Origin: Microbacterium salitolerans
Lineage (GTDB): Bacteria; Actinomycetota; Actinomycetes; Actinomycetales; Microbacteriaceae
DNA length: 64,000 bases
Assembly: GCF_019720895.1 (NCBI RefSeq)
Contig: NZ_JAHKSH010000002.1
Coordinates: forward strand, 248,001 to 312,000
Direction: 5' to 3'
A program made the position numbers and the translations under genes. The notes beneath the pieces were generated by a model that saw only the letters and a list, made by a program, of their open reading frames with translations, did not search any database and had not been told where the DNA came from. Of the stretch, positions 978 through 40,384 are shown piece after piece; position 1 is the stretch's first letter, and each line of letters starts with the position of its first letter.

Positions 978-1307
978 ATGACTGCCACGCTCACCTCTGA
1001 GAAGTTCGACGAGGTCACCGAGGCGCTCAAGGACGTCATGGATCCTGAGCTCGGGGTGAATGTCGTCGACCTGGGCCTCATCTACGACCTCGCCTGGGAC
1101 GACGAGAACGACGCTCTCATCGTGCACATGACCCTGACGAGCGCCGGCTGTCCCCTGACCGACGTCCTCGAAGAGCAGACGGCTCAGTCGCTCGACGGCG
1201 TCGTGGAGCGGTTCCGCATCAACTGGGTGTGGATGCCGCCGTGGGGGCCGGAGAAGATCACGGACGACGGGCGCGACCAGATGCGCGCGCTCGGCTTCGC
1301 GATCTGA
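978..1307 (+). CDS. sufT: SufT-like metal-sulfur cluster assembly factor (DUF59/MIP18)
   Basis: A 109-residue protein of the PaaD/MIP18 (DUF59) family, which helps mature Fe-S proteins together with the Suf system. The family core DPELGVNVVDLGLIYDL is at residues 22-38, and the conserved Cys is C58 in TSAGCPL. It lies 9 bp after sufC and ends just before a strong terminator, so it is the last gene of the suf transcript. Length and sequence are ordinary for the family. The exact client proteins are unknown. Confidence 0.9.
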   Translation: MTATLTSEKFDEVTEALKDVMDPELGVNVVDLGLIYDLAWDDENDALIVHMTLTSAGCPLTDVLEEQTAQSLDGVVERFRINWVWMPPWGPEKITDDGRDQMRALGFAI

Positions 1308-1331
1308 CGACGTCGCAACCATCCCTCCTGA

Positions 1332-1359
1332 ACGGCCCGCAGAGTCCTCTGCGGGCCGT
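1332..1359 (+). terminator. Intrinsic terminator of the suf operon
   Basis: A perfect 13-bp stem (ACGGCCCGCAGAG pairing with CTCTGCGGGCCGT) with a 2-nt TC center, followed by TTTCG. It lies 24 bp after the sufT stop and before the next promoter. It has few trailing T residues, as is common in high-GC actinobacteria. Confidence 0.8.
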
Positions 1360-1402
1360 TTCGCGGTGTTGCGTCCCGATGCCGCGCGCCGCAGACGACA
1401 GA

Positions 1403-1408
1403 TAGGCT
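1403..1408 (+). promoter_or_regulatory. -10 element TAGGCT of a leaderless promoter
   Basis: TAGGCT ends 7 nt before the GTG start of the aminotransferase at 1416. This is the spacing expected if transcription starts on the start codon. No clear -35 is seen. The same geometry recurs at many genes in the window. Confidence 0.6.
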
Positions 1409-1415
1409 CGAGGGC

Positions 1416-2567
1416 GTGACGACTCCTCTCGACGCTCTGCCCCTCGACACCCTGCGCCGACGCTCGAGCACGAAGTGGGCCACGCACCCGCACGACGTGC
1501 TGCCGCTGTTCGTCGCGGAGACCGACTTCGCGCTCGCCGAGCCGATCGAGCGCACCCTCGCGGAGGCGCTGCGCATCGGCGACACGGGGTACGTGCCGCC
1601 GAAAACGCGCTACCCCGAGGCGTTCGCCGGGTTCGCGGACCGCCACTGGGGGTGGCAGGTCGACCCTGCCCGCGTGCGCACGACCTGCGACGTCATGATG
1701 GGCGTCGCCGAGCTGATCCGCGCGACGGCTCAGCCGGGGGAGAAGGTCGTCATCACCTCACCCGTCTACCCGCCGTTCTTCGACGTGCACGATGAGTCGC
1801 GCACGCAGGCCGTCGACGTGCCGCTCCTGCGCGACAAGGAGGGCTGGAGTCTCGACCTCGAGAACATCGAGCGAGCGTTCGCCGAAGGCGCCGTCGCGAT
1901 CCTGCTGTGCAACCCGCACAACCCGACCGGAACCGCCCACTCGCGGGAGACGCTCGCGGAGCTCGCGCGCATCGCGGACCGGCACGGCGCCGTCGTCATC
2001 AGCGACGAGATCCACGCGCCGCTCGCCATGCCGGGGGCGTCCTTCACGCCGTTCCTCACCGCGTCGTCCGAGGCGGAGCAGGTGGGGGTGTCGGTGCAGA
2101 GCGCGAGCAAGGCATTCAACCTCGCCGGACTCAAGTGCGCGCACCTGGTCACGGCGTCCGACCGCATGACGAGGATCGTCCAGGACATCCCGATGGAGGT
2201 CGAATGGCGCACGGGGCTGTTCGGCATCCAGGCGGGGATCGCGGCGTTCGAAGAGGGTGATGCGTGGCTCGACGCGCTCGTCGCGCGCCTCGCGTCGAAC
2301 CAGACGCTGCTCGTCGACCTGCTCGCGGAGCACGTGCCGGGCGCCGTCTACGAGCCCGGCGACGCGGGGTTCCTCGCGTGGGTCGATCTGAACCTCCTCG
2401 GCTGGGGTGACGCCCCTGCGCAGCGGATCCTCGACGAGGCGCGCGTCGCGCTCGTCCCGGGCCTGTCGTTCGGCCAGGCGGGGGCGGGCTTCGCCCGGAT
2501 CAACTACGGCACCGGGCCCGAGATCCTCACCGAGGCGATCGAACGGATCGGACGGCTCGTGGGCTGA
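1416..2567 (+). CDS. MalY/PatB-type PLP-dependent cystathionine beta-lyase / aminotransferase
   Basis: Fold-type I PLP enzyme of 383 residues. The nucleotide region after GVAELIRAT carries the usual PxYPPF motif (SPVYPPFFD), then CNPHNPTGT and the PLP lysine K232 in SASKAFNLAGLK. These features match the MalY/PatB group, which cleaves C-S bonds of cystathionine or related sulfur amino acids, though transamination is also possible. The GTG start is set by a TAGGCT -10 box 7 nt upstream and no Shine-Dalgarno, so it is probably leaderless. It stands alone after the suf terminator; a link to sulfur metabolism is plausible but not shown. Confidence 0.88.
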   Translation: MTTPLDALPLDTLRRRSSTKWATHPHDVLPLFVAETDFALAEPIERTLAEALRIGDTGYVPPKTRYPEAFAGFADRHWGWQVDPARVRTTCDVMMGVAELIRATAQPGEKVVITSPVYPPFFDVHDESRTQAVDVPLLRDKEGWSLDLENIERAFAEGAVAILLCNPHNPTGTAHSRETLAELARIADRHGAVVISDEIHAPLAMPGASFTPFLTASSEAEQVGVSVQSASKAFNLAGLKCAHLVTASDRMTRIVQDIPMEVEWRTGLFGIQAGIAAFEEGDAWLDALVARLASNQTLLVDLLAEHVPGAVYEPGDAGFLAWVDLNLLGWGDAPAQRILDEARVALVPGLSFGQAGAGFARINYGTGPEILTEAIERIGRLVG

Positions 2568-2577
2568 CCGATGAGAT

Positions 2578-2618
2578 CTATCGACTTACGATAGACTCCT
2601 ATTGAATATCGATAGGAG
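2578..2618. promoter_or_regulatory. Operator/leader with nested inverted repeats hiding the ribosome binding site of the DUF2975 gene
   Basis: This AT-rich stretch in a GC-rich genome holds CTATCG-N5-CGATAG (2578-2594), the 8-bp palindrome TATCGATA (2607-2614), and CTCCTAT-N9-ATAGGAG (2596-2602 with 2612-2618). CGATAG occurs again at 2610-2615. The right arm of the last repeat contains AGGAG, the Shine-Dalgarno of the gene starting at 2624. If that repeat folds in RNA it would mask the ribosome binding site. The repeated CGATAG half-sites also fit binding by the small HTH protein encoded two genes on. Confidence 0.55.
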
Positions 2619-2623
2619 ACCTC

Positions 2624-3091
2624 ATGAGTCGATGGATCACACGGGGTGCGCAGGCGATCGTCGCCCTGGCGTTCGCGGGGGCGCTCTTCCTGCAGACCGT
2701 CCTGCTGCTCGAGATCGGCGACGAGCTCTCGGGCGCCCGTGAGCGCGGCGTGATCGGGTGCGCGGTCGCGTTCCTCGCGTGCGCGCAGGTCGTGCTCGTG
2801 TGCGTGTGGCGGCTTCTCGCGCTGGCGCGGCAGGGTCTCGTGTTCCGCGCGCGTGCGTTCCGCTGGGTGGACGCCATCATCGGCGCCTGCGGTGTCGCCG
2901 GCATCGTCGTCTTCGCCGCCGCGGTGCTCGTCGCCCCGCTCCCGGATGACGGTGGACCGGCCCCCGGTGTCGTGCTGCTCGTCTGTGTGTTCGCGGCGAT
3001 GTGCTGGGGGGTCGCGCTCGTCGTCACGGTGATGCGCGGGCTGCTCGCCCAGGCGATCGCGTCGCGCGCTGAGCTCGACGAGGTGATCTGA
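2624..3091 (+). CDS. DUF2975 family integral membrane protein
   Basis: A 155-residue protein with four predicted membrane helices (about residues 8-30, 44-66, 82-105, 113-138). The pattern matches DUF2975, a family of unknown function nearly always paired with a small Cro/CI-type regulator, as here. The start is supported by AGGAG six bases upstream. The stop overlaps the start of the HTH gene by one base (TGATG), so translation is coupled. A role in membrane or envelope signalling is often guessed for the family; nothing in the sequence decides it. Confidence 0.8.
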   Translation: MSRWITRGAQAIVALAFAGALFLQTVLLLEIGDELSGARERGVIGCAVAFLACAQVVLVCVWRLLALARQGLVFRARAFRWVDAIIGACGVAGIVVFAAAVLVAPLPDDGGPAPGVVLLVCVFAAMCWGVALVVTVMRGLLAQAIASRAELDEVI

Positions 3092-3294
3092 TGCCGATCG
3101 TCGTCGACATCGACATCATGCTCGCGCGTCGTGGGATGGCGGTCGGAGAGCTGGCCGATCGCATCGGGATCACTCCGGCCAACCTGGCTGTCCTGAAGAA
3201 CGGTCGCGCGAAGGCGGTGCGGTTCGCCACGCTGGAGGCGCTGTGTCGCGAGCTGGACTGTCAGCCCGCGGAGCTCCTGCGCTACGAGTCGTGA
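3091..3294 (+). CDS. Small XRE/Cro-CI-type HTH regulator paired with DUF2975
   Basis: A 67-residue protein that is little more than a helix-turn-helix: MAVGELADRIGITPANLAVLKNG forms helices 2-3 and CRELDCQPAELLRY is the family's C-terminal signature, as in YozG-like regulators. Its start overlaps the stop of the DUF2975 gene by one base. It probably autoregulates the pair through the CGATAG repeats at 2578-2618 (inference). Its last 125 bp overlap, tail to tail, the 3' end of the TetR gene on the other strand. Confidence 0.88.
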   Translation: MPIVVDIDIMLARRGMAVGELADRIGITPANLAVLKNGRAKAVRFATLEALCRELDCQPAELLRYES

Positions 3295-3814
3295 GAGCCG
3301 CGATGCCCGCATCGAAATCGGCGAGGGTCGACTCCGCGACCTCCTCCGGATCGGCGTCGTAGGCGCCGATCTCGGCGGCCTGGATGCGCTGCTGCACAAG
3401 TGACACGTGGCCGAGCAGGAACTGCGCGAGTACGGCCGCGTCTCGGGTGGGGTCGGCGGAACCCTCGCGGGTCAGCGCGTCTCGGAGAAGAGCGTGGGCG
3501 GGGTCGGATCCGAGCGCCAGGGCGGCGGTGCCGATGACCACTTCCGCGCCGTCGCGGTGAGAGAGGATCGCGCGGCGGATCGCCCGCGCCGTCGACGCGA
3601 CGTCGGTCGCGTGGCCCGCCTCGCCGACGATGCGGTCGGCTACCGCCGCGAGCAGGGACTGCTTGTTCTCGACATGCCAGTACAGGGCGCTCGGCTGCAC
3701 GCCGAGTGCGGTCGCGAGGCGACGCATCGACAGGTCGGGCAGGCCGAACTCGTCGAGGAGGCCGAGCGCGCGGTCGACGATCTGCTCGAGGTCGTGGGTG
3801 CCGCGATTCGCCAT
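3170..3814 (-). CDS. bioQ: TetR-family repressor of biotin uptake, BioQ-like
   Basis: TetR regulator of 214 residues with an N-terminal HTH (MRRLATALGVQPSALYWHVENK, about 30-51) typical of the family. It is divergent from bioYMN. The gap holds two operators of the form TGAAC-N3-GTTCA, close to the 13-bp site reported for BioQ of Corynebacterium and Mycobacterium, so BioQ is the best identity. I chose the ATG at 3814 because a TATAGT -10 box ends 7 nt before it (leaderless); an in-frame ATG at 3820 is the alternative. The last 40 or so codons are Ala/Pro/Arg-rich and overlap the HTH gene at 3091-3294 by 125 bp. That tail may be an unusual extension or reflect a frameshift near 3295. Confidence 0.72.
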   Translation of the reverse strand: MANRGTHDLEQIVDRALGLLDEFGLPDLSMRRLATALGVQPSALYWHVENKQSLLAAVADRIVGEAGHATDVASTARAIRRAILSHRDGAEVVIGTAALALGSDPAHALLRDALTREGSADPTRDAAVLAQFLLGHVSLVQQRIQAAEIGAYDADPEEVAESTLADFDAGIAALTTRSAGAPRADSPARDTAPPAWRTAPPSRDRSSGQPGWPE

Positions 3815-3821
3815 GCGCATG

Positions 3822-3855
3822 ACTATACTGAACGGCGTTCAATGAACGGTGTTCA
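3822..3855. promoter_or_regulatory. Back-to-back bioQ/bioY promoters with two BioQ operators
   Basis: The palindromes TGAACGGCGTTCA (3829-3841) and TGAACGGTGTTCA (3843-3855) are centered 14 bp apart. The bioY -10 box TATACT (3824-3829, plus strand) and the bioQ -10 box TATAGT (3827-3822, minus strand) overlap each other and abut operator 1. A bound repressor would therefore block both promoters. The sites match the known TGAAC-N3-GTTAC type of BioQ motif. Confidence 0.75.
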
Positions 3856-3867
3856 GGAAGGCGTGAC

Positions 3868-4464
3868 ATGACAGGGAACGACCGCTTCGAGGCCCGCGAC
3901 ATCGCACGGGTCGCCGTGTTCGCGGGGATCATCGCCGTGCTCGGACTGATGGGGCCGATCCCGGTGCCCGGCCTCGTGCCGATCACGGCCCAGACGCTCG
4001 GCGTCATGCTCGCGGGAACCGTTCTCGGATGGAAGCGCGGCGGGGCGGCGGTTGCCGTCGTGTTCCTCCTGGCTGCCGTCGGTCTCCCCGTGCTGTCGGG
4101 CGGCCGCGGAGGCCTCGGGGTCTTCCTCGGCCCTGCCTCGGGCTACCTCATCGGCTGGCTCCCCGCCGCGATCGTCGTCGGACTCATCGCGCACGCGGGC
4201 GCGCGCCGGCTGGTGTGGTGGCGCGTCGCGCTCGGCGCGGTCATCGGCGGCATCGCCGTCATCTACGCGTTCGGGATCCCCGTGCAGGCGGCTGTCACCG
4301 GCATGTCCCTCGGCGACACGGCGCTCACGTCGCTCGCCTTCCTCCCGGGCGACATCATCAAGGCGGTGATCGCGACGGCCCTCACGATGGTGCTGTACCG
4401 CGCGTATCCGCCGGCATTCCCTGCCAGCGTGCGTCGTTCGCGCCGCGTCGTGCAGACCGCGTGA
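3868..4464 (+). CDS. bioY: BioY, biotin-specific S component of an ECF transporter
   Basis: Membrane protein of 198 residues that binds biotin and delivers it to the BioMN energizing module. It starts with FEARDIARVAVFAGIIAVLGLMG and continues VPITAQTLGVMLAGTVLG, both hallmarks of BioY. About six membrane helices are apparent. AGGAAG at 3855-3860 is a good ribosome binding site for the ATG. Its stop overlaps the GTG of bioM by four bases. Transcription should be repressed by BioQ through the two operators just upstream. Confidence 0.93.
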   Translation: MTGNDRFEARDIARVAVFAGIIAVLGLMGPIPVPGLVPITAQTLGVMLAGTVLGWKRGGAAVAVVFLLAAVGLPVLSGGRGGLGVFLGPASGYLIGWLPAAIVVGLIAHAGARRLVWWRVALGAVIGGIAVIYAFGIPVQAAVTGMSLGDTALTSLAFLPGDIIKAVIATALTMVLYRAYPPAFPASVRRSRRVVQTA

Positions 4465-5743: not shown

Positions 5744-5802
5744 CCGGGACGTCGCGGAGCCGAAGCGCCGCGACGCCCGGCCGACGGCCAGTCACACGCC
5801 GA

Positions 5803-5808
5803 TAGGAT
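5803..5808 (+). promoter_or_regulatory. Probable -10 element TAGGAT upstream of the ABC-F gene
   Basis: TAGGAT 51 bp before the GTG at 5860 fits the TANNNT form used by other genes here, but with a leader. No convincing -35 or terminator is visible between bioN and this site. Confidence 0.4.
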
Positions 5809-5859
5809 GGTCAGCTGGCGCATTCGCGTCGAAGATCCCCGACAGAACGGACCCTCCTC

Positions 5860-7458
5860 GTGCTTGCCGTCAGTGACCTCGAGATCCGCGTCGGTGCGCG
5901 CCTGCTCATGAGTGATGTGAGCTTCCGTGTCGCCGGTGGCGACAAGATCGGGCTCGTGGGGCGCAACGGCGCGGGGAAGACGACCCTCACGAAGGTGCTC
6001 GCGGGTGACCTTCCTCCCAACGATGGGACCGTGACGCTCTCGGGCGAACTCGGATACCTGCCGCAGGATCCGCGATCCGGCGATCCCGAGGAGCTCGCGC
6101 GCACGCGCATCCTCAACGCACGCGGGCTCGGCGACCTCACAGCGGGCATCTCGCAGGCGACAGAGGAGATGGCATCCGAGAACGCCGCCGTCGCCGAGAA
6201 GGCGATGCGCCGCTTCGGGCGCCTCACGGAGCGCTTCGAGACGTTGGGCGGATACACGGCCGAGGCCGAGGCCGCGACGATCGCGAGCAACCTCTCGCTT
6301 CCCGACCGGATCCTCGACCAGCCGCTGAAGACGCTGTCGGGCGGTCAGCGCCGTCGCATCGAGCTCGCACGGATCCTCTTCAGCGACGCCGACACCATGA
6401 TCCTCGATGAGCCGACGAACCACCTCGACGCCGACAGTGTCGTGTGGCTGCGCGAGTTCCTGAAGTCCTACAAGGGCGGACTCATCGTCATCAGCCACGA
6501 CGTCGACCTCGTCGGCGAGACGGTGAACCGCGTGTTCTATCTCGATGCGAATCGCCAGATCATCGACATCTACAATATGGGGTGGAAGCACTACCAGCGC
6601 CAGCGGGTCGCGGACGAGGAGCGTCGCAAGAAGGAGCGGGCGAACGCCGAGAAGAAGGCCGGCGCCCTGCAGCAGCAGGCGGCGAAGTTCGGGGCGAAGG
6701 CGTCCAAGGCCGCGGCGGCGCATCAGATGCAGGCGCGCGCGGAGAAGCTCCTGTCGGGTCTCGACGAGGTGCGCCGGGAGGATCGCGTCGCGAACATCCG
6801 GTTCCCCAAGCCGTCGGCCTGCGGACGCACGCCCCTCATGGCGAAGAGCCTGTCGAAGTCGTACGGCGCGCTCGAGATCTTCGCGGGTGTCGATCTCGCG
6901 ATCGACCGGGGCTCGAAGGTCGTCGTTCTCGGCCTCAACGGCGCGGGAAAGACGACGCTGCTGCGCATCCTCGCGGGTGTCGACGACTCCGATACGGGGC
7001 AGATCGAACCCGGACACGGGCTCAAGATCGGCTACTACGCGCAGGAGCACGAGAACCTCGACGTCGACCGCAGCGTCCTGCAGAACATGATGTCGGCGTC
7101 TCCCCACATCAATGAGACCGAGGCGCGCAAGGTCCTCGGTTCCTTCCTCTTCACCGGCGACGATGTACTCAAGCCGGCCGGAGTGCTGTCGGGTGGTGAG
7201 AAGACGCGCCTGTCGCTCGCGACGCTCGTCGTGTCGAGCGCGAACGTGCTGCTGCTCGACGAGCCGACGAACAACCTCGACCCGGCCAGCCGCGAGGAGA
7301 TCCTCGGTGCGCTGGCCCACTACGAGGGCGCCGTCGTGCTCGTCTCGCACGACGAGGGCGCTGTCGAGGCGCTCAACCCCGAGCGCGTCCTGCTGCTGCC
7401 GGACGGCGTCGAGGACATCTGGAACAAGAGCTACATCGATCTCATCACGCTCGCGTAG
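5860..7458 (+). CDS. ABC-F family ATPase (ribosome-associated)
   Basis: Protein of 532 residues with two ABC domains in one chain and no membrane part. Walker A motifs are GRNGAGKTT (34-42) and GLNGAGKTT (about 357-365), with signatures LSGGQRRRIE and LSGGEKTRLS. A charged, Lys/Glu/Ala-rich linker (about 245-310) joins them, as in ABC-F factors that act on the ribosome E site. Such proteins rescue or gate stalled ribosomes; some give antibiotic resistance. Nothing here shows which, and a housekeeping EttA/Uup-like role is more likely. It is monocistronic by spacing, with a GTG start. Confidence 0.9.
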   Translation: MLAVSDLEIRVGARLLMSDVSFRVAGGDKIGLVGRNGAGKTTLTKVLAGDLPPNDGTVTLSGELGYLPQDPRSGDPEELARTRILNARGLGDLTAGISQATEEMASENAAVAEKAMRRFGRLTERFETLGGYTAEAEAATIASNLSLPDRILDQPLKTLSGGQRRRIELARILFSDADTMILDEPTNHLDADSVVWLREFLKSYKGGLIVISHDVDLVGETVNRVFYLDANRQIIDIYNMGWKHYQRQRVADEERRKKERANAEKKAGALQQQAAKFGAKASKAAAAHQMQARAEKLLSGLDEVRREDRVANIRFPKPSACGRTPLMAKSLSKSYGALEIFAGVDLAIDRGSKVVVLGLNGAGKTTLLRILAGVDDSDTGQIEPGHGLKIGYYAQEHENLDVDRSVLQNMMSASPHINETEARKVLGSFLFTGDDVLKPAGVLSGGEKTRLSLATLVVSSANVLLLDEPTNNLDPASREEILGALAHYEGAVVLVSHDEGAVEALNPERVLLLPDGVEDIWNKSYIDLITLA

Positions 7459-36517: not shown

Positions 36518-36790
36518 ATGCCTTTCGGGAACGCCGGTATCTGGCAGATCCTCCTGATCCTCGCCATCGTCCTGCTCATCTTCGGCGCCTCGCGCCTGCC
36601 AGCGCTGGCGAAGAGCCTGGGACGCTCCGCGCGTGAGTTCAAGGGCGAGATCAAGCAGATGAAGGACGAGGGCAAGGCAGACAGCACGGCCGAGTCGACG
36701 GACGCCACGACGGACGCACCGTCGACGACGCCCTCCGCATCGCCGTCGTCGAACGACTCGTCGTCGTCTTCGTCCGACGTCAAGCCGTAG
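36518..36790 (+). CDS. tatA: Twin-arginine translocase subunit TatA
   Basis: A 90-residue protein with a single N-terminal helix (GIWQILLILAIVLLIFGASRLP), an amphipathic helix (LAKSLGRSAREFKGEIKQM), and a Ser/Thr/Asp-rich tail. TatA forms the pore for folded proteins with the RR signal. A TAGACT box near 36479 overlaps the end of pafBC and may be its promoter, with a short leader. tatC follows after 6 bp. A Tat-dependent oxidase is encoded 1.8 kb downstream. Confidence 0.93.
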   Translation: MPFGNAGIWQILLILAIVLLIFGASRLPALAKSLGRSAREFKGEIKQMKDEGKADSTAESTDATTDAPSTTPSASPSSNDSSSSSSDVKP

Positions 36791-36796
36791 CCGGTC

Positions 36797-37621
36797 GTGG
36801 CACGACCCCTCACGAGCGAGGGAGACCGGGGCGGCGAGCCGCTGGGTGACCGCCGCATGACGCTGGCGGGGCACCTCAAGGAGCTCCGTCGACGCCTGAC
36901 GTTCGCGGTGATCGGGCTCGCGGTGGGCATGATCATCGCGGCCTTCGCAACGACGTGGATCATCGAGTGGCTCACGTACCCGATCGAGCGCGTCGCGGAG
37001 AAGCTCAACGACGACACCTTCACGAAGCTCACCTTCACGACCGTCACCGGCCCATTCGATATGCGCGTGCGCATCTCGTTCGTCGCAGGCCTCATCCTGT
37101 CTGCCCCCGTCTGGCTGTGGCAGATCTGGCGCTTCATCACACCGGGCCTGACCCGGCGCGAGTTCTGGTACGCGCTCGGCTTCATGGGCGCGGCGATCCC
37201 GCTGTTCTTCGGCGGTGTGACGCTCTCGCTGTTCCTGCTGCCGAACATCATCACGATCATGGCGTCGTTCTTCCCCGAGAGCGTCGAGAACGCGGCCCAG
37301 ATGTTCACCGCGACCGAGTACTACAACTTCGTCTTCCGCACGATGACGATCATCGGAATCGGCTTCGTCTCGCCCGTCTTCGTCGTCGCGTTGAATCTCG
37401 CCGACGTGATCCGCGCGAAGCAGATCATGAGGGCCTGGCGCTGGGTCGTCGTGCTCTGCCTGGTGTTCGGGATGTTCGCCTCGCCGCCCGCCGACATGCT
37501 CACGTTCGTCATCGTGTCGGCGGTCCTCTTCGTGCTCTACATGCTCGCGGCGCTGCTGTGCCTGCTGTTCGACTGGCGGAAGAAGAAGCGCGCCCCCGAG
37601 CTCTTCATCGAGTACGACTGA
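36797..37621 (+). CDS. tatC: Twin-arginine translocase subunit TatC
   Basis: A 274-residue membrane protein with six helices, the receptor for RR signal peptides. HLKELRRRLTFAVIG near the N terminus and the conserved region FWYALGFMGAAIPLFFGG are typical. It starts at GTG 36797, 6 bp after tatA, and the frame begins with a cytoplasmic stretch (ARPLTSEGDRGGEPLGDRRM). A 21-bp perfect hairpin terminator follows. Confidence 0.95.
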   Translation: MARPLTSEGDRGGEPLGDRRMTLAGHLKELRRRLTFAVIGLAVGMIIAAFATTWIIEWLTYPIERVAEKLNDDTFTKLTFTTVTGPFDMRVRISFVAGLILSAPVWLWQIWRFITPGLTRREFWYALGFMGAAIPLFFGGVTLSLFLLPNIITIMASFFPESVENAAQMFTATEYYNFVFRTMTIIGIGFVSPVFVVALNLADVIRAKQIMRAWRWVVVLCLVFGMFASPPADMLTFVIVSAVLFVLYMLAALLCLLFDWRKKKRAPELFIEYD

Positions 37622-37631
37622 GCCTGGGGCG

Positions 37632-37678
37632 GTGCGAAAGAGGAGCCCGAGCATCAGGCTCGGGCTCCTCTTTCGCAC
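37632..37678. terminator. Very strong bidirectional terminator after tatC
   Basis: A perfect 21-bp stem (37632-37652 with 37658-37678) around an ATCAG loop. The center arms are GAGGAGCCCGAGC and GCTCGGGCTCCTC. It separates the tat transcript from the convergent RidA gene. The inner CTCTTTC on the plus strand supplies some pyrimidines. Confidence 0.9.
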
Positions 37679-37687
37679 TGCCGTGCG

Positions 37688-38329
37688 TCAGCCGGGGTAG
37701 ACCGCGTCGACCTCGATCTCCACGAGCCAGCCGTCGACCGGCAGATTCTCGATCTCGAGCGCGAATCGTGAGGGACGTACGTCGTTCGACACCATCGGCT
37801 CGGTCGGGGTGGATCCGAGGAGCACCTCGAGAGAGTCGCCGGTCGAGCGGTTCGTGTTCGCGAAGAACTGGCGGTACGCGCGATTGAAGCCGGAGTAGTC
37901 CATCTTCTCCGCGCCCTCGGGGTTCTGCAGGAAGACCCGCATCGAGATGACGTCCTCGTAGGAGAGACCCGCCCGTTCGAGGTTGTCGCCGATGCGATTC
38001 AGCGTGCCGATCGCCTGTGCCTCGGTCAGCGTCACTCCCTCGGGGAGCTTGCCGCCGGGGAACACGTCTGTCGGGATGAAGCGCTCTTCGGCCGTCGCGT
38101 CAGGATCGTCGTTCATCGCGGCAGGCCCGAGACCGGAGGACTTGTACCAGGCGGCGTTCTTGCCGATCGCGACGCCGTCCGCGAGAAGGGCCTCATCGCC
38201 TGAGACGAACGAGTGCGCTTCGGTCGGCTTCGGCGTGAAGACGCCCGAGGCGAATGCGGTGCTCGGAACGGCGACGGCGGCGGTTGCGGCGACGGCGAGA
38301 GCGACCCTCGTGCGGGTTCTCATCTTCAT
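37688..38329 (-). CDS. Exported RidA/YjgF-family protein (enamine/imine deaminase-like)
   Basis: A 213-residue protein with an N-terminal signal peptide (KMRTRTRVALAVAATAAVA, cleavage likely after AFA near 27). RidA-family proteins hydrolyse reactive imines and enamines to keto acids and are normally cytoplasmic; a secreted one is unusual. The catalytic Arg has an equivalent in DVRPSRFALEIENLP and the acidic residue in LVEIEVDAV, so activity is plausible. The ATG has AAGGAG seven bases upstream; the open frame continues to 38515 without support. It is divergent from a Tat-exported amine oxidase that would produce imines, which suggests the two work together outside the membrane. Confidence 0.82.
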   Translation of the reverse strand: MKMRTRTRVALAVAATAAVAVPSTAFASGVFTPKPTEAHSFVSGDEALLADGVAIGKNAAWYKSSGLGPAAMNDDPDATAEERFIPTDVFPGGKLPEGVTLTEAQAIGTLNRIGDNLERAGLSYEDVISMRVFLQNPEGAEKMDYSGFNRAYRQFFANTNRSTGDSLEVLLGSTPTEPMVSNDVRPSRFALEIENLPVDGWLVEIEVDAVYPG

Positions 38330-38632
38330 GGGGACTCCTTGCGTGGTTCTCCGGCGGTGGCCGGGCCGCCGGATCCTCCGAGCGGCGTGTGGAGGCTCCC
38401 ACCCCGAGATTTCACGATCGTGTCGGGAGGAGTCGACGGAGACACATGTCACGTGATCGACACACGTCGCCGTTTTCGTCACACGCCCGTCATGGATCAT
38501 GACGCCGGTCGACACCGAGGCGAATCATCGGCGTGATGCGACCTTCATAGCCTGCTCGGACGTGGAGCGGACGGACCCAGATCCGTCATCGGGGGAGCGC
38601 TCCCGGAGAGTCCGCCCGAGAGGTTCAGTCAC
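38330..38632. promoter_or_regulatory. Divergent promoter region with several palindromes
   Basis: This 303-bp gap separates the RidA-like and amine-oxidase genes and contains no credible ORF. It holds three palindromes: CACGATCGTG (38413-38422), TCACGTGA (38449-38456), and GTCATG-GAT-CATGAC (38489-38503). The local AT content is higher than in the flanking genes. A shared regulator for both genes is likely. No regulator gene is adjacent, so its identity is open. Confidence 0.5.
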
Positions 38633-40243
38633 ATGGTCACCGAGAAATCCGCCGGCGTCTCGCGCCGCAACTTCCTGCATGCCGTCGGCGCCGGATCCAG
38701 TGCTGGTGTCCTGTTCGCCACGATGGGGGCGATGGGGCTCGCGCCGGCTGCGGCCGCTCAGCCGACGTCCGGTGACTGGACGCCTCCGTCCGGCAGCGAC
38801 TTCTCCCTGACCGGTCGCGGACGCAAGACGGTCGTCATCGTCGGGGCAGGGCCCGCGGGTCTGGCGTCGGCGTACGAGCTGCAGAAGGCGGGCTACGACG
38901 TCACCGTGCTCGAGGCGCGGCATCGCCCGGGCGGGCGCACGCTGACGGTGCGTGGCGGCGACAGCGAGACCGACAGCGACGGGGTCACGCAGACGGCGCG
39001 TTTCGACGACGGCATCTACATGAACTGCGGGGCCGGTCGCATTGCGCAGTGGATGGTCACGATGGACTACCTCCGCGAGCTCGGTGTGCCCTACGAGGTG
39101 TTCACGAACGCCAACGCCGACGCGTATCTCTATAACGAGAAGGCCGGATCCCGGCCGGGCGCGCCGACCCGGTACCGCACCGCGAAAGCCGACTGGTTCG
39201 GATACACCTCGGAGCTGCTGAGCTATGCCACCGATCAGGGCGCGCTCGATCAGAAGCTCACGACCGCGGACAAGGACCACCTGCGCGACTTCCTTCGCAG
39301 CTGGGGGGCGCTTCAGGCCGACGGCACCTACACGGGTGGGAACAACCGCGGCTTCTCCGAGTACCCCTCGGCCTGGAACGAGCACGGAACTCCGCTGACG
39401 GGACCCGCGTCCATGTCGGAGGTCTTCGGGTCGCGCATGGGGATGTACTTCCCGTTCGAGGTCAACTGGGAGCAGTCGATGCTGATGTTCCAGCCCACGG
39501 GCGGCATGGACGCCATCTGCGACCACTTCGTGAGAGCCATCGGCAAGAACAACGTGAGATACAACTCGCCGGTCACCGGCGTCGAGAACACCTCCTCGGG
39601 CGTTGCGGTCACGTACCAGCGCGCCCACGGCCCCGCGAAGCGGATCGAGGCCGACTACGCCATCGTCTCGGCGCCGGCCCAGCTCATGCGCCGGTGGGAC
39701 ACCAACTGGAGTCCCGAGATCGACGCCGCGCTCGGCGAATTCTCGATCGGGTCGCCGGCCGGCAAGATCGGGCTGCAGTACCGGTCCCGCTTCTGGGAGG
39801 ACGACCACCGCATCTTCGGCGGCATCACCGAGACCGATATGGACCTCGCTCACATCTGGTACCCGTCGTATGGCTACGGCGAGAAGAAGGGCCTCGTCGT
39901 CGGCTACTACAACACGGGTGGGAACGCCCGTTCGTACGGCGCCATGAGCCCGGCGCAGCGTCAGGCGCGCGCCGTCTCACAGGGCGTGAAGATTCACGGC
40001 GAGAAGTACGCGACCGAGCTCGAGAGCTCGTTCTCGATCTCGTGGGACAAAGTGCCCTATGTCGAGGGCGCGTGGGCGTTCCCCGACACGTCGTCGTCGG
40101 GATTCACGCAGCTCCAGGCCGGTGAGGGCAGGGTGTTCTTCGCGGGCGACTGGATGTCGGAGATCTCGGCCTGGCAGCACGGGGCCTTCTGGTCGGCGCG
40201 CTACGCGGTGCAGGCGCTTCACGCGCAGGTCATGGCGAGCTGA
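38633..40243 (+). CDS. Tat-exported flavin amine oxidase
   Basis: A 536-residue FAD enzyme. The Tat signal has RR at 11-12 (VSRRNFLHAVGA) and a hydrophobic stretch ending in APAAAA near 42. The FAD site is VVIVGAGPAGLASA (67-80) and ARHRPGGR (95-102). The C-terminal FAD motif is FFAGDWMSEISAWQHGAFWSA. It belongs to the flavin monoamine/L-amino acid oxidase family, turning an amine or amino acid into an imine plus peroxide in the cell envelope or medium. It is divergent from an exported RidA-like gene, and tatAC lies just upstream. Confidence 0.88.
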   Translation: MVTEKSAGVSRRNFLHAVGAGSSAGVLFATMGAMGLAPAAAAQPTSGDWTPPSGSDFSLTGRGRKTVVIVGAGPAGLASAYELQKAGYDVTVLEARHRPGGRTLTVRGGDSETDSDGVTQTARFDDGIYMNCGAGRIAQWMVTMDYLRELGVPYEVFTNANADAYLYNEKAGSRPGAPTRYRTAKADWFGYTSELLSYATDQGALDQKLTTADKDHLRDFLRSWGALQADGTYTGGNNRGFSEYPSAWNEHGTPLTGPASMSEVFGSRMGMYFPFEVNWEQSMLMFQPTGGMDAICDHFVRAIGKNNVRYNSPVTGVENTSSGVAVTYQRAHGPAKRIEADYAIVSAPAQLMRRWDTNWSPEIDAALGEFSIGSPAGKIGLQYRSRFWEDDHRIFGGITETDMDLAHIWYPSYGYGEKKGLVVGYYNTGGNARSYGAMSPAQRQARAVSQGVKIHGEKYATELESSFSISWDKVPYVEGAWAFPDTSSSGFTQLQAGEGRVFFAGDWMSEISAWQHGAFWSARYAVQALHAQVMAS

Positions 40244-40324
40244 CGATCCTCGTCGGCGACGCCGGGAGGGAGAGCGTCGCGCGGTCCTGCGGCACCGGCG
40301 TCATCGGGATGAATGCGGTCTGAC

Positions 40325-40358
40325 GAGGGGCGGGGTGCCGCGCGGCACCTCGCCCCTC
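40325..40358 (+). terminator. Terminator after the amine oxidase gene
   Basis: A 16-bp stem with one G-T wobble (GAGGGGCGGGGTGCCG with CGGCACCTCGCCCCTC) and a 2-nt CG center. It lies 82 bp after the oxidase stop and 27 bp before helY; no T tract. Confidence 0.65.
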
Positions 40359-40384
40359 CGCACGCGAAGTGGTGGGATGGACCC

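What the first reader, a model, noticed from the sequence alone, without database searches (positions are those of the whole stretch)
37688..40243. Exported RidA-like protein divergent from a Tat-exported amine oxidase: a possible extracytoplasmic imine-handling pair
RidA proteins normally protect the cytoplasm from imines and enamines. Here a RidA-family protein has a signal peptide and keeps the equivalents of the catalytic Arg and the acidic residue. It shares a 303-bp palindrome-rich promoter region with a Tat-signal flavin amine oxidase whose product is an imine. The pair lies directly after tatAC, and the tat-helY order usual in relatives is split by it. The simplest reading is an oxidase plus dedicated imine hydrolase acting outside the membrane, with peroxide released there. 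The enzyme motifs and signals are seen; the joint role is inference.
Basis: partly seen in the sequence, partly recalled or inferred. Interest (0 to 1): 0.7.

Follow-up and report, generated by a model that had tools for sequence, protein, structure and literature searches.

The report
Exported amino-acid oxidase with exported RidA
The bacterium carries a gene pair that probably strips nitrogen from amino acids outside the cell membrane, one enzyme making an unstable imine and its partner clearing it; the pair recurs in distant bacteria, and similar pairs are already known from an alga and a nitrogen-fixing bacterium.

Summary
Window 37688-38329(-) is a RidA-family protein (PF01042) with a Sec-like signal peptide and the catalytic Arg/Glu. 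Window 38633-40243(+) is a Tat-signal flavoenzyme whose nearest solved relative is Rhodococcus opacus L-amino acid oxidase (LAAO; 2JAE, E 1e-120). The pair is real. In a genus sample both genes occur in the same 3 of 198 genomes, adjacent in all three. In a class sample all 24 RidAs of this type (24 of 394 genomes) sit beside such an oxidase, 23 of them downstream on the same strand. The association crosses phyla: Actinomycetota, Pseudomonadota (with cytochrome c) and one Bacillota plasmid (followed by its own tatA-tatC). All 40 paired RidAs examined have signal-like N-termini, the Arg and the Glu; all 40 partner oxidases have the twin arginine. [quoted passage not shown] The kind is not new: Gluconacetobacter lao-cccA-ridA and Chlamydomonas LAO1/LAO2 are published. 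New here are the cytochrome-free actinobacterial form, its breadth, and consistent export signals on RidA. The tatAC neighbourhood is an insertion peculiar to this strain; the palindromes are not above chance. Catalysis and export are untested.

The parts
37688..38329 (-). Exported RidA-family protein, 213 aa: signal peptide about residues 1-28, catalytic Arg188, Glu204
   Evidence: PF01042 40 bits; nearest solved relatives PSPTO3006 and PFL1385; signal score 2.41; R188/E204 in 40 of 40
38633..40243 (+). Tat-signal LAAO-like flavin oxidase, 536 aa; twin Arg 11-12, Arg136, Lys378, Tyr410, Trp514
   Evidence: PF01593 132.8 bits; 2JAE E 9.9e-121; residues counted on 75 oxidases
38330..38632 (.). 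Divergent intergenic region, 303 bp; holds GGGAGCGCTCCC at 38593-38604, not conserved in relatives
37628..37683 (.). Long hairpin between the tatC end and the RidA end, candidate shared terminator (approximate limits)
   Evidence: stretch 37625-37690 folds at -56.6 kcal/mol; the terminator scan does not list it
40325..40358 (.). Hairpin after the oxidase gene, candidate terminator (approximate limits)
   Evidence: stretch 40318-40365 folds at -36.0 kcal/mol; not listed by the terminator scan
37622..40365 (.). Inserted cassette (hairpin, RidA, oxidase, hairpin) between tatC and helY; right limit approximate
   Evidence: G043, tatC 77% identical, has about 30 bp between the tatC stop and the helY ATG; tatC followed directly by helY in 30 of 31 other congeners
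36518..37621 (+). tatA and tatC, the only TatC found in the genome; neighbours, not part of the conserved module
   Evidence: no tatA, tatC or helY match in the 18-, 19- and 12.6-kb stretches around the pair in G049, G101 and Oerskovia

Best explanation
The pair is a two-enzyme unit for deaminating L-amino acids outside the cytoplasmic membrane. The LAAO-type flavoenzyme is folded with FAD and exported by Tat; it oxidises an L-amino acid to the 2-imino acid, which leaves the active site. The RidA protein, exported separately by a Sec-type signal, binds the imino acid's carboxylate through Arg188 and speeds its hydrolysis to 2-keto acid and ammonium (water activation by Glu204). In the actinobacterial form no cytochrome gene accompanies the pair, so O2 is the likely electron acceptor and H2O2 a by-product; in Pseudomonadota a cytochrome c gene suggests respiratory use of the electrons. 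Shown: gene identities, export-type N-termini, catalytic residues, conserved adjacency. Inferred: activities, substrate, site of action, electron acceptor, benefit (nitrogen or keto-acid supply, and keeping reactive imines off surface proteins).
For: Same 3 of 198 congeners hold both genes, adjacent and divergent. In a class sample of 394 genomes the RidA type occurs in 24, every one beside an LAAO-type oxidase; 23 intact, one interrupted by masked N stretches. The weakest of the 24 RidA matches has E 2e-46 and none lies between that and the limit of 1e-15, so the type is discrete. In 23 same-strand actinobacterial loci RidA follows the oxidase by -4 to 38 bp, 7 of them with a 4-base overlap (RidA starts were chosen by signal score). 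On plasmids 14 of 18 records with a RidA match have an oxidase match beside it. Signal score of 1.6 or more: 40 of 40 distinct paired RidAs, against 4 of 18 control rows; 2.0 or more: 34 of 40 against 0 of 18. Twin Arg in 40 of 40 partner oxidases, 24 of 35 unpaired ones. Rid1, Rid2 and Rid3 proteins hydrolyse imines made by snake-venom LAAO in vitro (PMC5619798, passages); RidA and Rid2 likewise in PMC4433059 (passages).
Against: 36 of 59 oxidase places in the class sample have no RidA within the fetched stretch of about 3 kb either side, including G396, 73% identical to the window oxidase; its contig begins at the oxidase, but the genome gave no RidA of this type anywhere. So the oxidase can work without it. 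In Pseudomonadota and the other bins the oxidase was within 6 kb of the RidA in only 7 of 24 loci, and 2 of the other 17 genomes or bins have no such oxidase found; 4 of 18 plasmid records have the RidA match without the oxidase. Imino acids hydrolyse spontaneously in water, so the gain outside the cell is unclear. No activity or export is measured. The signal score is home-made, takes the best start codon, and is not SignalP.
Confidence: 0.72

Rival explanations
1. RidA is mainly a non-catalytic or stabilising subunit of an extracytoplasmic oxidase complex, as reported for the Chlamydomonas periplasmic LAAO (catalytic M-alpha with RidA-type M-beta).
For: Precedent quoted in PMC5053998 (passage). 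Genes overlapping or near-overlapping in 23 actinobacterial loci suggest stoichiometric production. Long loops of the actinobacterial RidAs, absent from the proteobacterial ones, could be contact surfaces (inference).
Against: Catalytic Arg and Glu identical in 40 of 40, which a purely structural role would not require. Oxidases without a RidA keep the same active-site Arg, Tyr and Trp (35 of 35 each).
Confidence: 0.15
2. The oxidase acts on a different primary amine or on a dedicated pathway substrate, and RidA is a pathway deaminase rather than an imine-clearing helper.
For: The PF01593 family is broad; the PF01042 fold includes pathway deaminases (AmnE among the fold matches).
Against: Best solved match by far is an LAAO, and the residues aligned with its Arg, Tyr and Trp are kept: Arg136 75 of 75, Trp514 75 of 75, Tyr410 73 of 75. 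Shared pathway genes around the pair were not tested systematically; the frame lists of L007, L090 and L091 were only read by eye.
Confidence: 0.08
3. The neighbourhood is a chance result of insertion next to tatAC, without a joint function.
For: In this strain the pair is an insert between tatC and helY and lies elsewhere in its relatives.
Against: The two genes stay together through different locations, orientations and phyla. The label 'RidA beside' needs 8 changes on the oxidase tree against 25.3 in shuffles.
Confidence: 0.03

Closest known systems
lao-cccA-ridA cluster of Gluconacetobacter diazotrophicus PAL5 (GDI2456-2454; PMC5053998)
   Same: Tat-signal LAAO related to R. opacus LAAO, with RidA in one cluster; two transposon insertions in lao abolish IAA; lao and ridA reported together in 19 further genomes
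   Different: Has a cytochrome c gene in the cluster. The passages that I saw give a signal peptide for the LAAO and do not discuss one for RidA. The window pair has no cytochrome and is divergent.
Chlamydomonas reinhardtii LAO1/LAO2 (PMC10805672)
   Same: Extracellular (periplasmic) LAAO with a putative RidA gene in one cluster, drawn as acting together in the periplasm
   Different: Eukaryotic alga; sequences not compared here
Rid genes clustered with FAD amine oxidases (PMC4433059)
   Same: RidA and sometimes Rid3 genes cluster with FAD-dependent amine oxidases; imine hydrolysis proposed
   Different: 'signal peptide', 'secreted', 'periplasm' and 'extracellular' occur 0 times in its main text
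Rid3 proteins PSPTO_3006 and PFL_1385 (PDB 9bka, 9bkc; PMC5619798)
   Same: Nearest solved structures by sequence and by fold; deaminate imines made by LAAO and by D-arginine dehydrogenase
   Different: About 23% identity in the fold alignment; the window protein has longer loops; export of these Rid3 proteins not examined here
Rhodococcus opacus L-amino acid oxidase (PDB 2JAE)
   Same: Best solved match, over residues 62-533; Arg, Tyr and Trp positions kept
   Different: Neighbourhood of its gene not examined

Membership tests
Rid superfamily (PF01042) | Domain score over the curated cut-off | tested here: met
   40 bits against 27.3
Rid superfamily, imine-hydrolysing group (RidA, Rid1-3) | Catalytic Arg, with the Glu | tested here: met
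   Arg188 and Glu204, 40 of 40 paired RidAs; the rule is from PMC4433059 (passages)
RidA subfamily in the narrow sense (TIGR00004) | Score over the NCBIfam cut-off | tested here: not met
   26.1 bits against 106.25
Rid3 subfamily | Subfamily assignment (CDD model, tree) | tested here: inconclusive
   Rid3 structures are the best matches; model confidence only moderate (mean pLDDT 67.6); no CDD model available and no Rid tree built
Rid superfamily | Trimer with active sites between subunits; imine deaminase activity | not testable with these tools
   needs the purified protein
L-amino acid oxidase (PF01593, LAAO type) | FAD amine oxidase domain and the substrate-binding Arg, Tyr, Trp of LAAO | tested here: met
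   PF01593 132.8 bits; 2JAE E 9.9e-121; Arg136 and Trp514 75 of 75, Tyr410 73 of 75. The role of these residues is recalled; one paper search for it found nothing
L-amino acid oxidase | Oxidation of L-amino acids | not testable with these tools
   needs an assay
lao-cccA-ridA cluster | LAAO and RidA genes adjacent | tested here: met
lao-cccA-ridA cluster | Cytochrome c gene in the cluster | tested here: not met
   No CxxCH in the open frames of 90 aa or more picked in the stretches of the window (L004), G049, G101 or Oerskovia
Tat substrate | Twin-arginine signal | tested here: met
   SRRNFL; both Arg in 40 of 40 paired oxidases
Exported proteins | Export in the cell | not testable with these tools
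   needs fractionation or proteomics

The most novel reading that the evidence does not exclude
Exported Rid proteins are a coherent extracytoplasmic class that evolved as partners of Tat-exported LAAO-type enzymes in at least three phyla: as a translationally coupled two-gene oxidase unit in Actinomycetota, as a cytochrome c-linked amino-acid dehydrogenase unit in Pseudomonadota, and as a self-contained plasmid unit with its own tatA-tatC in Bacillota. Rid proteins would then have an outside-the-cell career that the cytoplasmic damage-control picture does not cover.
Probability: 0.6. Interest if true: 0.55.

Novelty: new variant of a known kind. Interest (0 to 1): 0.45.

Why it matters
Rid proteins are known as cytoplasmic guards of PLP enzymes. 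A widespread class that is exported and tied to a surface oxidase would show that imine hydrolysis is worth a dedicated enzyme outside the cell too, and gives a clean genetic test: delete one gene of an isolated pair. The module would also make ammonium, keto acids, possibly peroxide and, from tryptophan, auxin precursors outside the cell, which matters for plant- and alga-associated bacteria. The cytochrome-linked and cytochrome-free versions suggest a testable split between amino-acid dehydrogenases and oxidases.

Tried and rejected
tatAC as part of the module: rejected for this genus. One TatC was found in the genome, the pair lies away from tat in the stretches fetched of G049, G101 and Oerskovia, and G043, with the most similar TatC (77%), lacks the pair. 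The best TatC match is 58-77% identical to the window's in four of 98 congeners and 41-52% in the other 94, so its divergence is not tied to the pair. In Metabacillus tatA and tatC do follow the pair; one record only.

Shared palindromic promoter: rejected as a conserved signal. GGGAGCGCTCCC resembles the CebR/LacI-family operator (recalled), but 10 of 100 shuffles of the window give as many near-matches, and the aligned relatives lack it.

Recent foreign origin by composition: not supported; GC3 of oxidase 0.90 and RidA 0.86 against 0.90 and 0.94 for helY and tatC.

Structure: the RidA model is only moderate (mean pLDDT 67.6, residues 1-52 under 50) and was used only for the fold match. The oxidase was not modelled, since sequence already gives 2JAE. 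No complex was modelled.

A census of Bacillota could not be run.
Full report
WHAT IS THERE. Window 37688-38329 on the minus strand encodes a 213-aa protein with the PF01042 (Rid) domain, 40 bits against a cut-off of 27.3. It does not reach the narrow RidA model TIGR00004 (26.1 against 106.25). Its N-terminus, MKMRTRTRVALAVAATAAVAVPSTAFASG, looks like a Sec signal with an AFA cleavage site (the reading is mine). Window 38633-40243 on the plus strand encodes a 536-aa flavoprotein with SRRNFL (Tat) and PF01593, 132.8 bits. Its best solved relative is Rhodococcus opacus L-amino acid oxidase 2JAE over residues 62-533, E 9.9e-121; other LAAOs follow at E 3e-28 and weaker. The genes are divergent, 303 bp apart, between tatAC and helY. 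The genome has one further PF01042 gene, on another contig.

CONSERVATION OF THE PAIR. Genus: RidA (E up to 1e-8) in 3 of 198 genomes, oxidase (E up to 1e-80) in the same 3 of 198, adjacent and divergent in all three. Class: oxidase (E up to 1e-40) in 51 of 394 genomes, 59 places; RidA (E up to 1e-15) in 24 of 394, one place each. I looked at all 59 oxidase places (58, the window as L004) for a RidA-type domain within about 3 kb, with a profile built from paired RidAs: 23 of 59 have one. The 24th RidA genome, G401, has an oxidase beside its RidA that is interrupted by masked stretches. So 24 of 24 RidAs of this type lie next to the oxidase, while 36 of 59 oxidases lack it. One of these 36, G396, begins at a contig edge, but no RidA of the type was found anywhere in that genome.

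BEYOND THE CLASS SAMPLE. One scan of genome contigs with the RidA gave 25 loci: Oerskovia douganii with the same divergent pair, and 24 others titled Pseudomonadota or metagenome bins (one titled Euryarchaeota). The oxidase lies within 6 kb in 7 of those 24 (L008, L010, L011, L016, L017, L018, L024). The genomes of the other 17 were searched: 15 of 17 have the oxidase somewhere, 2 (L026, L027) do not. In 7 of the 17 (L009, L012, L019, L020, L021, L025, L029) the oxidase coordinates abut the outer edge of the fetched locus, which would put it about 6 kb from the RidA; this rests on comparing coordinates, the contig names being hidden. On plasmids RidA matches in 18 records, 14 of which have an oxidase match beside it; the four without are two Proteus and two Komagataeibacter records.

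ARCHITECTURE. Actinomycetota: 23 loci (22 of the class sample plus Nonomuraea) have oxidase then RidA on one strand, gap -4 to 38 bp, a 4-base overlap in 7 (RidA starts were chosen by signal score, so gaps are approximate); G401 has the same order. Of the loci I saw only the window, G049, G101 and Oerskovia are divergent (303-354 bp as scored). Pseudomonadota: a cytochrome c lies between oxidase and RidA in five gammaproteobacterial loci (L010, L011, L017, L018, L024), in L008 and L016 (CxxCH) and in the annotated plasmids of Microvirga, Comamonas, Paracoccus, Sulfitobacter and Ketogulonicigenium. Deinococcus, Rhizobium, Mesorhizobium and Dinoroseobacter plasmids have oxidase plus cytochrome c and no RidA by my profile in the stretch; a Paraburkholderia plasmid stretch also has no RidA. 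In Dinoroseobacter the oxidase and cytochrome c follow cytochrome c oxidase genes. Bacillota: the Metabacillus dongyingensis plasmid has oxidase, Rid, tatA, tatC in a row. In 25 of 28 stretches with a cytochrome-free pair (27 actinobacterial, one Metabacillus) no picked open frame holds CxxCH; three have a distant 387-aa frame with it.

EXPORT. I scored signal-like N-termini with a simple rule (positive n-region, uncharged 11-residue hydrophobic stretch), taking the best start codon. Of 43 RidA rows 42 scored at least 1.6 and 36 at least 2.0. The exception, L130, has no oxidase; two rows (L090, L091) repeat L005 and L006. That leaves 40 distinct paired RidAs: 40 of 40 at 1.6 or more, 34 of 40 at 2.0 or more. 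Controls were other PF01042 genes (31 loci given, 18 rows recognised by the profile): 4 of 18 at 1.6 or more, 0 of 18 at 2.0 or more. One paired RidA (Comamonas, L125) looks like a lipoprotein (my reading). Twin Arg is present in 40 of 40 paired oxidases and 24 of 35 unpaired ones; ten of the other eleven form one clade without a Tat start, and the eleventh (L092) begins at its contig end.

CATALYTIC RESIDUES. RidA: Arg188, Glu204, Glu206, Ser65, Gly66, Gln105 and Tyr152 identical in 40 of 40. Rid1-Rid3 keep the Arg and are predicted imine hydrolases; Rid4-7 lack it (PMC4433059, passages). The nearest solved structures by sequence are PSPTO3006 and PFL1385, also by fold (Foldseek E 1.3e-8 and 7e-8; model mean pLDDT 67.6); both are Rid3 proteins that deaminate imines from LAAO and DauA (PMC5619798, passages). 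Oxidase: on 75 sequences Arg136 75 of 75, Trp514 75 of 75, Tyr410 73 of 75, Lys378 69 of 75. In one search these align with LAAO residues that I recall as binding the substrate or sitting at the flavin.

HISTORY. On a quick tree of 75 oxidases (3 of 59 census places dropped as short) the label 'RidA beside' needs 8 changes, against 25.3 in shuffled labels, 0 of 500 shuffles as low. Long branches make the deep order unsure. In this genome the pair sits in an insert: 30 of 31 other congeners examined have helY directly after tatC (29 of the 98 others, those for which loci were given, plus G049 and G101), and in G043 about 30 bp separate the tatC stop from the helY ATG. The exception, G057, carries an unrelated 3.2-kb insert there. 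Composition does not mark the insert as foreign, and strong hairpins lie at both ends.

MECHANISM. Tat export of a cofactor-loaded oxidase, oxidation of an L-amino acid outside the membrane, release of the 2-imino acid, and hydrolysis by exported RidA to keto acid and ammonium. Everything after 'export-type N-terminus' is inference from family knowledge and gene linkage. In the actinobacterial form O2 is the likely acceptor; in Pseudomonadota cytochrome c is likely. The closest rival is that RidA is a subunit of the oxidase, as reported for the Chlamydomonas enzyme (quoted in PMC5053998).

WHAT IS KNOWN. Gluconacetobacter lao-cccA-ridA is published (PMC5053998, abstract and passages), as are Chlamydomonas LAO1 with LAO2/RIDA in the periplasm (PMC10805672, passages) and the clustering of RidA and Rid3 genes with FAD amine oxidases (PMC4433059, passages). 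A Rid6 gene in a nicotine-degradation cluster is mentioned in PMC7688666 (passages). I found no paper on bacterial exported Rid proteins as a class: (secreted, exported, periplasmic or extracellular RidA) listed two cable-bacteria papers, seen as listing only; one search listed one paper, whose RidA-family protein belongs to a set of enzymes placed in the cytoplasm (PMC9537276, passages); two searches gave papers already named, none, and the 15 shown of 314 were seen as listing only and, by title, add no other case. Only open-licence PubMed Central papers were searched.

VERDICT. A real, conserved LAAO-RidA pair with export signals on both proteins: a new variant of a known kind, with good support for joint function and no biochemical proof.

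Noticed in passing
L121 (Metabacillus dongyingensis plasmid pBY2G20), 3501-6764: Oxidase, Rid, tatA and tatC lie in a row on one strand, as if the plasmid brings its own export machine; a gene annotated as subclass B1 metallo-beta-lactamase lies about 2 kb upstream.
   Followed up: partly
L220 (G057:C2:293000-300500), 1084-4299: A congener with a 64% identical TatC also has about 3.2 kb of other genes (one looks by eye like a GNAT acetyltransferase) between tatC and helY, so this junction has taken inserts at least twice.
   Followed up: no
window 36797-37621: The only TatC found in the genome is 41-52% identical to that of 94 of 98 congeners and 58-77% to four, while helY stays at 70-89% in the loci compared; TatC seems unusually variable in this genus.
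   Followed up: partly
L242 (Dinoroseobacter shibae plasmid pDSHI02), 1-5892: LAAO-type oxidase and cytochrome c follow cytochrome c oxidase genes, suggesting respiratory coupling of the oxidase without RidA.
   Followed up: no
L009, L012 (gammaproteobacterial bins), about 5800-6942: Two tandem RidA-type frames after a TonB-receptor-like gene and a di-heme cytochrome c gene.
   Followed up: no
window 38593-38604: GGGAGCGCTCCC, like a CebR/LacI-family operator (recalled), 28 bp before the oxidase start; not conserved in the aligned relatives.
   Followed up: yes
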